Below are positions 7,287 to 32,508 of a DNA stretch of 64,000 nucleotides, in pieces. Where the stretch lies: contig NZ_JH711482.1 of NCBI RefSeq assembly GCF_000269805.1, positions 460,542-524,541 of the forward strand, in the 5' to 3' direction. The notes beneath the pieces were generated by a model. The model was not told the DNA's origin and did no database searches. It saw only the letters and a program-made list of their open reading frames with translations. Source of the DNA: Actinomyces massiliensis 4401292. Lineage in GTDB: Bacteria > Actinomycetota > Actinomycetes > Actinomycetales > Actinomycetaceae. How positions within the stretch are numbered: position 1 is the first letter of the stretch; every line of letters starts with the position of its first letter. The position numbers were made by a program, and so were the translations under genes.

Positions 7287-7592
7287 TCAGCCCGCGCAAT
7301 CGGTGCACACCGGCTGACCGGTGGCATCGTCGATATACGCCAACGAGCCGCGATGGTGAACCAGGAAGCACTCGGAGCACGTGAACTCGTCCTCCAACTG
7401 AGGAACGACATGAACGCTCAGCTCCTCGCGGGACAGGTCCGCGCCCGGAAGCTCGAAGCCCTCGGCGACCTCGTTCTCGTCCTCCTCGATAGCCTCCGAG
7501 GACTGATCCTTCTGCCGAGCGGTAAGCTCTTCGATGGAGTCGGACTCAGGCTCGTCGTCGTTCTTGCGCGGGGCGTCGTAATCGGTCGCCAT
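7287..7592 (-). CDS. DUF4193 zinc-ribbon-like protein
   Basis: The 101-residue protein starts MATDYDAPRK, has an acidic middle (EAIEEDENEVAEGFELPGAD), then the two-pair cysteine motif CSEC...CTDC near the C-terminus (about 72-99), which probably binds zinc. This is DUF4193, a small protein almost universal in actinobacteria and reported as needed for growth in mycobacteria. Its biochemical role is unknown. Its promoter should lie in 7593-7883, shared with the divergent sepH. Confidence 0.92.
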   Translation of the reverse strand: MATDYDAPRKNDDEPESDSIEELTARQKDQSSEAIEEDENEVAEGFELPGADLSREELSVHVVPQLEDEFTCSECFLVHHRGSLAYIDDATGQPVCTDCAG

Positions 7593-7883
7593 GGCCTGTC
7601 ACTCTCTCTCGTCGACGGCACTCGATCGGGCTCTCGGGCGGTTCGTGGCTCCGCCGGGACCGGCCATGACACCGAAAACCAGTGGCGGGCGACCCCTCCG
7701 AGCAGGGCACGCGCACCATAGCACCACGCACCGGCTGCGTGAACCAGGCCTGACGGCGATGCGGTAGGGCTCAGGGCGAACAGAGCCACATGCCGGCGTG
7801 CCACACCGGTCGACCTCCCGCAGCCCGCGCGGCGGGGATGGCACGCTGAGCCTGTACGACGGACACGAGGAGGCATATTCCCG

Positions 7884-30851: not shown

Positions 30852-30869
30852 GTCAGTCCAGTCAGTCCA
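30852..30869. repeat. 9-bp tandem repeat (2 copies) spanning the sigA stop codon
   Basis: Two exact GTCAGTCCA units straddle the sigA stop codon (30862-30864). Confidence 0.7.
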
Positions 30870-32508
30870 GATAGTCGCGCAGTACCTGGCTGCGAGAGGG
30901 GTGGCGCAGTTTGGACATGGTCTTGGACTCGATCTGGCGGATGCGTTCGCGAGTCACCCCATAGACCTTGCCGATCTCGTCCAGTGTCTTGGGCTGGCCG
31001 TCAGTCAAGCCGAAGCGCATCGAGACGACGCCCGCCTCGCGCTCCGAGAGCGTATCGAGCACGGCGTGCAGCTGCTCCTGCAGAAGCGTGAAGCTCACGG
31101 CATCCGCCGGAACAACGGCTTCGGAGTCCTCGATGAGGTCGCCGAACTCGGAATCGCCATCCTCGCCCAGGGGTGTGTGCAGAGAAATCGGCTCGCGTCC
31201 GTACTTCTGGACCTCGACGACCTTCTCCGGAGTCATGTCCAGTTCGACTGCCAGCTCTTCCGGCGTGGGTTCACGGCCCAGGTCCTGGAGCATCTGACGC
31301 TGCACACGCGCCAACTTGTTGATGACCTCGACCATGTGGACGGGAATACGAATCGTACGGGCCTGGTCCGCCATGGCCCGGGTGATGGCCTGACGGATCC
31401 ACCAGGTGGCATAGGTCGAGAACTTGTAGCCCTTGGTGTAGTCGAACTTCTCCACCGCGCGGATCAGGCCCAGGTTGCCCTCTTGAATGAGGTCGAGGAA
31501 GAGCATGCCGCGCCCCGTGTAGCGCTTGGCCAGCGAGACCACCAGGCGCAGGTTGGCCTCTAGCAGGTGATTCTTGGCGCGCTGGCCGTCCTGGGCGATC
31601 CAGTGCAGCTCACGGCGGTATTTGGCCTCAAGGTCATTGCCCTGCGCCCCCAGCAAGTGCTCGGCGTACAGGCCGGCCTCAATGCGCTTGGCGAGCTCGA
31701 CCTCCTGGGCGGCGTTGAGCAGCGCCACCTTGCCGATCTGCTTGAGGTAGTCCTTGACCGGATCCGCGGTGGCCCCGGCGGTCACCACCTTCTGCGCCGG
31801 CTCATCGGCCTCGTCGGAGTCGGAGACCGTGAAGGAGCCGTCCTTGTCCTTGTCAGAACGGGACTTCCTCCCGGATCTCTTGCCCGCCGCCTTCTCGGCC
31901 TGCTCACGTCTGATGCGATCGAGTTCGCCGGTCAGGGCCGCGATGGAGGGCTGCATCTTGATGCCCTTGATGATCCAGCCGCGGAAGATGAAGCCGTTGC
32001 TCGTCAGGAACTCGCGGGCGACAACAGGATGCTCCTCCTCGGGGATCACGAAGCGGGGCACAGGACCATGGCCGTAGGGGGCCAGGGTGATCGGCTCCTC
32101 AAGCGTGCCATTGCCCGCCAGTTCGAGCCCCTCGACGGTGGTGCGGCTGCGCACGTAGAGGGTTGCGCCAGGTGCGAGCCTGACGCCCTTGAGAGCCGCA
32201 GCGGTGTTGAAGGGATTGCGCTTGGTGCCGTCGCCGTTCTCCTTCAGGCTCACATCGAGGTAGTAGTCCCGCAGCTCGGGAAGAGGCTCATCGTCATCCT
32301 GCGCTTCAGAGTCATCCGGCTCATCGGCAGTGACGCCGTCCTCACCCTCCTCCGTGTCATCGACGTCATCCGAGTCCTCGTCCTCGTAGTCGTCGTCCTC
32401 GGTGTCGTCATCGAGATCGTCGAAATCGAGATCATCGCTGTCCTCGGGAGTCTCGTCAATGTCATCAGCGCGCTGTGAGCGCTTCCGCGTAGCTGTGGAA
32501 GAAGGCAC
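30862..32508 (-). CDS. sigA: Primary sigma factor SigA/HrdB with an atypical N-terminal insertion
   Basis: The 548-residue protein contains sigma regions 1.2 to 4.2. Region 1.2 begins near [21 protein letters not shown] (about 249), region 2 has [19 protein letters not shown], and region 4.2 ends [19 protein letters not shown]. It directs RNA polymerase to housekeeping promoters. Residues 14-77 are extremely acidic. Residues about 80-155, possibly to 185, resemble a beta-helix protein: [35 protein letters not shown] and [18 protein letters not shown] know of no primary sigma factor with this segment. GTG 32508 is supported by AAAGGA 5 nt upstream. Confidence 0.95.
31954..32271 (-). other. Beta-helix-like segment inside sigA
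   Basis: This stretch encodes residues about 80-185 of SigA. The pattern of Tyr-Tyr start, NGDGT turn, [27 protein letters not shown] and [10 protein letters not shown] is the usual entry sequence of right-handed parallel beta-helix enzymes (pectate-lyase-like). The following [13 protein letters not shown] could be the first full rung. No catalytic residues are recognisable. The identification is by eye and needs profile searching. Confidence 0.55.

What the first reader, a model, noticed from the sequence alone, without database searches (positions are those of the whole stretch)
31954..32271. Primary sigma factor SigA contains a beta-helix-like insertion
Between an acidic N-terminus (residues 14-77, mostly Asp/Glu) and region 1.2 (from about 249) the protein has NGDGT-NPF, PGATLYV, ELAGNGT and [12 protein letters not shown], in the order and spacing of the cap and first strands of right-handed parallel beta-helix enzymes. 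Such a fold in a housekeeping sigma factor is not one I know. It could be a recruited protein-protein or glycan-binding module, or a non-functional insertion tolerated in the variable N-terminus. The reading frame is continuous through the segment.
Basis: partly seen in the sequence, partly recalled or inferred. Interest (0 to 1): 0.85.

Follow-up and report, generated by a model that had tools for sequence, protein, structure and literature searches.

The report
Fucosidase module inside housekeeping sigma factor
In bacteria of the genus Actinomyces, the protein that starts transcription of most genes carries a small domain related to one found in sugar-cutting enzymes, and the domain has been kept and conserved, which suggests it gained a new job inside the cell.

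Summary
SigA (window 30862-32508, minus strand, 548 aa) has the primary-sigma regions plus a ~111-residue module (78-188; 31945-32277) between an acidic tail and region 1.2. A profile of 20 Actinomyces copies matches the N-terminal cap of beta-helix enzymes (7v6m 6.2e-5; GH136 6kqs 1.5e-4). It is in SigA of 49 of 49 genus genomes and in 0 of 98 SigA N-termini read from other genera. It is a conserved island (83% identity, dN/dS 0.16) beside a fast-changing acidic tail (35%, 0.51), so neither a neutral insert nor an ordinary region 1.1. I read it as an exapted enzyme module refitted as a docking or plug domain, in a family whose SigA mostly lack a recognisable region 1.1; function is inferred. 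AlphaFold failed on shallow alignments, on the sigma core too, so the fold rests on homology. One other genus's SigA carries an Ig-like repeat of a VanY-type enzyme, hinting at a wider habit.

The parts
30862..32508 (-). sigA, primary sigma factor, 548 aa, GTG start
   Evidence: Pfam Sigma70_r1_2, r2, r3, r4 all above cut-off; NCBIfam NF004561 787.6 bits against cut-off 582; frame continuous
32278..32469 (-). acidic tail, residues 14-77 (net charge about -39)
   Evidence: composition; mean pairwise identity 35%, dN/dS 0.51 in the genus
31945..32277 (-). mini-beta-helix module, residues 78-188, related to the GH29 fucosidase accessory module
   Evidence: conserved island, 83% identity, 65 of 111 columns invariant, dN/dS 0.16
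31834..31944 (-). probable helix ([21 protein letters not shown], residues 189-209, 87% identity) and variable basic linker (210-225, 59% identity)
   Evidence: helix is the best-scored part of a failed model, so weak
31765..31833 (-). pre-1.2 stretch, residues 226-248 ([23 protein letters not shown]), also seen in SigA of other genera of the family
   Evidence: similar [20 protein letters not shown] in non-genus SigA; 93% identity in genus
30865..31764 (-). sigma regions 1.2-4, residues 249-548
   Evidence: 95% and 99.5% identity in genus for the two halves

Best explanation
SHOWN: Actinomyces SigA holds a ~111-residue module homologous by sequence to the N-terminal cap and first coils of right-handed beta-helix proteins, and most closely to a ~105-aa module carried by GH29 alpha-L-fucosidases of the same order. 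It is in all 49 genus genomes held, sits between the acidic tail and region 1.2, and is under purifying selection. INFERRED: a copy of the enzyme module entered sigA once, before the known species of the genus split, in a family whose SigA mostly lack a recognisable folded region 1.1; it was then refitted for the cytoplasm (an aromatic pair lost, a genus-wide set of Arg/Lys fixed). MECHANISM (my estimate 35%): the module is a folded docking domain, tethered by the flexible linker, that binds RNA polymerase, sigma itself or a transcription partner through its SigA-specific conserved residues and so positions the strongly acidic tail near the DNA channel, doing the kind of job region 1.1 does elsewhere (keeping free sigma off DNA, tuning open-complex formation). 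Origin and conservation: about 95%.
For: Distribution: 49 of 49 genus genomes at 75-100% identity. In 47 of 49 the module lies 115-127 nt upstream of the SigA core hit, same strand and contig; the other two were read directly and carry it in frame before region 1.2 (L015, L017). Outside the genus: 0 of 98 SigA N-termini match the module profile (best E 1.2; positive control 2e-69). Homology: PDB profile hits 6.2e-5 and 1.5e-4; a GH29-module query finds the SigA of all 49 genus genomes at E 3.9e-10 to 5.7e-5; hhalign 99.4% over columns 3-104 with GH29 modules, 98.0% over 3-73 with beta-helix-type caps, 0.2% with ordinary SigA N-termini. Tree of 39 modules: SigA one clade (99/96), SigA plus GH29 split from full beta-helices (98/98). 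Autonomy: in L197 the fucosidase ends just after the module, near where the SigA homology ends. Selection. Refitting: W131/Y133 of GH29 modules (6 and 9 of 10 rows) are not kept in SigA; basic residues at 97, 152, 165, 181, 184 are in 20 of 20 SigA rows and at 110, 122 in at least 90%, against 0-1 of 10 GH29 rows at each. In four genus genomes only 2-3 proteins have sigma region 2 at E 1e-6, so the module is probably in most holoenzymes.
Against: No structure: AlphaFold gave pLDDT 41 both times, also on the sigma core of known fold, so it says nothing either way. No function was tested. The module as a whole is neutral (charge about 0), so a 'basic face' is not shown; R120 is basic in 10 of 10 GH29 rows and 181 in 4 of 9 beta-helix rows, so not all SigA Arg/Lys are new. 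At 178-185 SigA (GWIIKGIKM) looks more like full beta-helix rows (W.I..L.L) than like GH29 rows, and in pairwise BLAST only 2 of 6 GH29 modules, but also one beta-helix protein (L046), align past query residue 100 (the chance frame L050 too): a beta-helix protein proper as donor is not excluded. The tree has long branches, the GH29 group itself only 82/66, and treekit warned that joins may be false. The module lies on the region-1.2 side of the acidic tail, whereas the region-1.1-like domains of other families lie N-terminal to the low-complexity stretch. Those domains match PF03979 only below cut-off (E 0.17 and 0.27; 1 of 3 tested not at all). RpoB and RpoC show no genus-specific insert that looks like a partner.
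Confidence: 0.7

Rival explanations
1. The module is a docking site for a regulator (an anti-sigma-like or metabolite-responsive protein) and has nothing to do with the role of region 1.1.
For: Genus-wide fixed residues, both hydrophobic (F153, F175, I180, I183, M185) and basic (R152, R165, K184). SigA of related bacteria meets other proteins: MoaB2 binds sigma A in M. smegmatis (start of the abstract of PMC11656743 in a search listing).
Against: No partner identified; co-occurring genus-specific proteins were not sought. RpoB/RpoC carry no matching insert.
Confidence: 0.3
2. The module keeps a carbohydrate- or nucleotide-sugar-binding function and makes SigA sense sugars.
For: Its nearest relatives sit in GH29 fucosidases.
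Against: An aromatic pair common in the enzyme modules is lost in SigA. I know of no demonstrated glycan binding by the enzyme module either, and did not search for it.
Confidence: 0.07
3. A tolerated, functionless insertion in a variable N-terminus.
For: It lies in a region that varies wildly between genera and is absent from SigA examined outside the genus.
Against: dN/dS 0.16 and 65 of 111 invariant columns, against 0.51 and 2 of 64 in the adjacent acidic tail; gap fraction 0.004; retained in 49 of 49 species.
Confidence: 0.05
4. Chance resemblance or convergence, not homology with beta-helix proteins.
For: Pfam and NCBIfam see nothing in the segment alone; identities to hits in other genera are only 29-49%.
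Against: Reciprocal hits in 49 of 49 genomes, profile-profile 99.4% with full-module coverage, clean negative control.
Confidence: 0.03

Closest known systems
C-terminal accessory module of GH29 alpha-L-fucosidases (PF01120, then F5/8 type C) in Actinomycetaceae and three other families of the order
   Same: Homology over ~101 columns, similar domain limits, neighbouring group in the tree
   Different: Those are large hydrolases that I take to be secreted (no signal predictor was run); SigA is a transcription factor. SigA lacks the W/Y pair and has its own Arg/Lys set
GH136 lacto-N-biosidase ErLnb136 (6kqs) and 7v6m
   Same: Cap and first-coil motif, E 1.5e-4 and 6.2e-5. ErLnb136 residues 242-663 form a beta-helix (passages of PMC7335108); the match starts at residue 251. 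That 7v6m is also a beta-helix is recalled
   Different: SigA holds only about two coils (inferred from the alignment), none of the later coils or the catalytic part
Sigma-70 region 1.1
   Same: A conserved domain in the N-terminal part of a primary sigma factor, next to an acidic stretch
   Different: No PF03979 match; its sequence relatives are beta-helix modules; it comes after, not before, the acidic stretch
Mycobacterium tuberculosis SigA N-terminal extension
   Same: Long, partly acidic N-terminal part ahead of region 1.2 that is needed for function: removal of residues 1-179 but not 1-132 abolishes initiation (abstract and passages of PMC10011835)
   Different: Described there as intrinsically disordered, with no folded module
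SigA of another Actinomycetaceae genus (g22, L063) with one Ig-like repeat
   Same: A module otherwise in a VanY-type carboxypeptidase of the same genome (53% identity) sits in the SigA N-terminus
   Different: Different module; one genome only

Membership tests
Primary (group 1) sigma-70 factor | Regions 1.2, 2, 3, 4 | tested here: met
   All four Pfam models above cut-off; NF004561 equivalog above cut-off
Primary (group 1) sigma-70 factor | Canonical region 1.1 (PF03979) | tested here: not met
   No PF03979 row at E up to 10 in SigA; related SigA of the order also miss the cut-off, so this does not exclude membership
Right-handed parallel beta-helix proteins | Cap and first-coil sequence pattern | tested here: met
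Right-handed parallel beta-helix proteins | Many stacked coils | tested here: not met
   Homology ends after about 104 columns, then helix and linker; Pfam Beta_helix not found
Right-handed parallel beta-helix proteins | Three-dimensional fold | tested here: inconclusive
   AlphaFold pLDDT 41.2 and 41.3, failing on the known sigma core as well
GH29-associated mini-beta-helix module | Full-length sequence homology and domain limits | tested here: met
GH29-associated mini-beta-helix module | Context: C-terminal to a GH29 catalytic domain and F5/8C domain | tested here: not met
   It lies in SigA; no GH29 in that ORF
GH29-associated mini-beta-helix module | Aromatic residues at positions 131/133 | tested here: not met
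   W 6/10 and Y 9/10 in GH29 rows; commonest SigA letters A (0.80) and H (0.50), found in 0 of 10 GH29 rows
Functional equivalent of sigma region 1.1 | Blocks DNA binding by free sigma, enters the RNAP DNA channel | not testable with these tools
   Needs biochemistry or cryo-EM

The most novel reading that the evidence does not exclude
In Actinomycetaceae the N-terminus of the primary sigma factor is an interchangeable domain socket. After loss of region 1.1, different lineages filled it with unrelated ready-made modules: a fucosidase mini-beta-helix (Actinomyces), an Ig-like repeat of a VanY-type enzyme (genus g22) and Rho_N repeats (genus g32). In Actinomyces the module became a working part of the housekeeping holoenzyme and took over region 1.1's role.
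Probability: 0.25. Interest if true: 0.88.

Novelty: new variant of a known kind. Interest (0 to 1): 0.7.

Why it matters
Primary sigma factors are among the most conserved bacterial proteins. A domain otherwise found in sugar hydrolases, fixed in the sigma factor of a whole genus, would be a clear case of exaptation from (apparently extracellular) enzymes into the transcription machinery. It makes the poorly understood N-terminal region of actinobacterial SigA testable, because here it holds a compact conserved module instead of a disordered tail. It also shows that Pfam and NCBIfam pass over such an event.

Tried and rejected
Structure: AlphaFold on the module (9 rows) and on SigA 78-548 (9 rows) gave pLDDT 41.2 and 41.3; no fold search was run on such models. 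Viral or plasmid origin: 0 of 27 pattern stretches in viral contigs encoded a relative; phage and plasmid records gave only partial weak hits (8 phage records at 7e-3 to 8e-3; 2 plasmid records at 5e-5 and 5e-3). Second copy in the same genome: the only other hit (E 0.112, one stop) lies over reading frames that look like methionyl-tRNA formyltransferase and an rRNA methyltransferase (names are my reading) and is chance. Partner insert in RpoB/RpoC: only changes of 1-3 residues and a ~20-residue Asp/Phe-rich RpoC C-terminal tail, 4 genus genomes against 7 others. Glycan sensing: disfavoured. Literature: 10 searches of the held PMC library; no listed title or abstract start describes such a module in a sigma factor. 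Three returned no paper at all, lists were capped (10 of 582), and subscription papers are not held, so this is no proof of absence.

Rows dropped: one search parsed 37 complete SigA frames (36 of 38 loci plus the window) and kept 30 distinct; L015 and L017 lack a complete frame. dN/dS used the 60 closest pairs, not independent (59 usable for module and acidic tail). Of 99 SigA loci fetched from other genera, 98 gave an N-terminus (L174 did not). Of these I read 20 in full (last 330 residues; one of them also); the rest I saw as their most hydrophobic 50-residue window. All 98 were searched with the module profile. In one search near-duplicate modules and L050 were dropped (39 rows kept).

Full report
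What is there. The frame at 30862-32508 (minus) is a complete primary sigma factor: Pfam regions 1.2, 2, 3 and 4 all pass their cut-offs and the best NCBIfam model is an RNA polymerase sigma factor equivalog at 787.6 bits against 582. Its neighbours are an NMN transporter, a polyprenyl synthetase and a PASTA-domain protein kinase. Ahead of region 1.2 lie a short basic start, a 64-residue acidic tail of net charge about -39, the segment in question (pI 7.0, charge about 0), a probable helix with a basic linker, and a short stretch also seen in SigA of other genera.

The segment is related to beta-helix proteins. Alone, the window's segment finds 7v6m, 6kqs and 7dmk as its best PDB matches, weakly (0.0045, 0.043, 0.15). 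A profile of 20 genus members raises them to 6.2e-5, 1.5e-4 (GH136) and 0.0099 (PL6); the other four of seven hits are two asparagine-tRNA ligase chains (0.041, 0.97) and two alginate lyases (0.72). The match to 6kqs starts at residue 251, and its paper places the beta-helix domain at 242-663 (passages of PMC7335108); that 7v6m and PL6 enzymes are beta-helices is recalled. Profile-profile comparison with seven beta-helix-type caps from the family gives 98.0% over columns 3-73. Nine exact N-termini of ordinary SigA from other genera give 0.2%. Pfam and NCBIfam show no hit for the segment alone.

Closest relative. Searching 213 genomes of the family, the segment hits 67: 49 of 49 genus members plus 18 genomes of ten other genera (genus membership). 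One genus member, G045, has a second hit, in a fucosidase. Of 15 weak-hit loci fetched, six carry the hit in a frame with GH29 alpha-L-fucosidase; five of these six were scanned and all five pass PF01120, four of them also an F5/8 type C model (L043 falls just short). Six look like full beta-helix proteins (Pfam Beta_helix above cut-off in L046, below it in L045, the other four by eye); L050 and L052 are short frames that look like chance, and L051 gave no protein-level hit. In reverse, a GH29 module as query finds the SigA of all 49 genus genomes, E 3.9e-10 to 5.7e-5. Profile-profile with six GH29 modules gives 99.4%, E 2e-21, over columns 3-104. A tree of 39 modules has SigA as one clade (99/96) and SigA plus GH29 split from full beta-helices (98/98); branches are long and the GH29 group itself is weakly supported (82/66). 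Of six order-level hits read, three are GH29 proteins with the same module (L196 by motif; L197 and L200 by eye; three other families) and three look like beta-helix proteins; in L197 the fucosidase ends just after the module. So the module looks like an autonomous domain more widespread than the genus, and SigA is the likely receiver. A beta-helix protein proper as donor is not excluded: the end of the SigA module (GWIIKGIKM) resembles those more than GH29 rows.

When and where gained. The profile was also run on 396 genomes of the order and 396 of the phylum (both samples drawn evenly, overlapping in part with each other and with the family). In the order 19 match: 7 genus members in SigA, and 12 weak hits elsewhere. 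In the phylum only the window's own genome matches at 1e-5. Where both places are listed, no weak hit coincides with the SigA; some SigA places were beyond the list. Directly, 0 of 98 SigA N-termini from other genera of the order match the module profile (best E 1.2; positive control 2e-69). In 47 of 49 genus genomes the module lies 115-127 nt before the SigA core hit; the other two were read directly. One gain before the genus radiated, with no loss seen, fits all this.

Selection. Over 30 distinct SigA of the genus, mean pairwise identity is 83% in the module (65 of 111 columns invariant), 87% in the helix, 35% in the acidic tail (2 of 64), 59% in the linker, 95% and 99.5% in the sigma core halves. 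Summed dN/dS over the 60 closest pairs is 0.16 (module), 0.51 (acidic), 0.05 and 0.02 (core). This is what a folded, used domain looks like. Against ten GH29 rows, about two dozen scaffold positions are shared (Tyr83, Asp85, Gly92, Gly94, Pro99, Gly114, Gly132, Gly134, Pro139, Tyr145 and others), while the aromatic pair at 131/133 is gone. Basic residues at 97, 110, 122, 152, 165, 181 and 184 are in 90-100% of 20 SigA rows and in 0-1 of 10 GH29 rows at each; position 120, by contrast, is basic in all GH29 rows, and 181 in 4 of 9 beta-helix rows. That suggests a kept scaffold with a changed surface, though the module's net charge is near zero.

The slot. Among N-termini of other families of the order, many carry a short helical region-1.1-like domain near the start (by eye); PF03979 sees two of three tested, only below cut-off. 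Most Actinomycetaceae SigA outside the genus that I read show Ala/Lys-rich and acidic low-complexity sequence. Exceptions: Rho_N repeats in the two g32 SigA fetched (E 4.8e-16 and 2e-18) and, in the one genome of genus g22, an Ig-like repeat 53% identical to repeats of a VanY carboxypeptidase in the same genome. This is the basis for my boldest reading, a domain socket; it rests on few genomes outside Actinomyces.

How it may work. In M. tuberculosis, SigA without residues 1-179, but not without 1-132, fails to start transcription, and the authors point to the acidic residues between (abstract and passages of PMC10011835); so the acidic N-terminal part of an actinobacterial SigA can matter. 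I propose that the Actinomyces module docks on RNA polymerase, sigma or a partner through its SigA-specific residues and places the acidic tail. Only the sequence facts are shown; docking, partner and effect are inference. In the four genus genomes tested only 2-3 proteins contain sigma region 2, against 2-12 in seven other genera, so whatever the module does probably touches most transcription.

What failed. Two AlphaFold runs gave pLDDT near 41 and could not fold the sigma core either, so they say nothing about the module. RpoB and RpoC show no genus-specific domain that could be a partner; RpoC has a ~20-residue Asp/Phe-rich tail. The held literature gave no earlier report in the listings I saw.

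Noticed in passing
L063 (G128:C46, record positions 7400-7654): SigA of genus g22 carries an Ig-like repeat 53% identical to tandem repeats of a VanY carboxypeptidase of its own genome (L144): a second enzyme-type module in a primary sigma N-terminus, seen in one genome.
   Followed up: partly
L140, L141 (genus g32); weaker L107, L106 (genus g6): Rho_N/SAP-like domains, two to three copies in L140/L141, at the N-terminus of SigA (PF07498 E 2e-18 and 4.8e-16; L107 only 0.048; L106 judged by eye).
   Followed up: partly
L072 (genus g7), start of SigA: A helical-looking stretch (STSALKAQWVEYRVNAGHLKRSEAQKMTKKELIDFAT) resembling HeH/SAP domains by eye; no Pfam hit.
   Followed up: no
L185-L188, RpoC C-terminus: RpoC of four genus genomes ends in a ~20-residue Asp/Phe-rich tail (DFxADFSDDFRTGFS..) absent from one genome each of seven other genera.
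   Followed up: no
L040, L041, L043, L044, L054: The GH29-linked ~105-aa module shows no Pfam hit at E up to 0.1; it could be defined as a new domain family. L196 and L197 carry it too but were not scanned.
   Followed up: partly
G000, G009, G010, G031: Only 2-3 proteins with sigma region 2 per Actinomyces genome, against 2-12 in seven other genera of the family.
   Followed up: no
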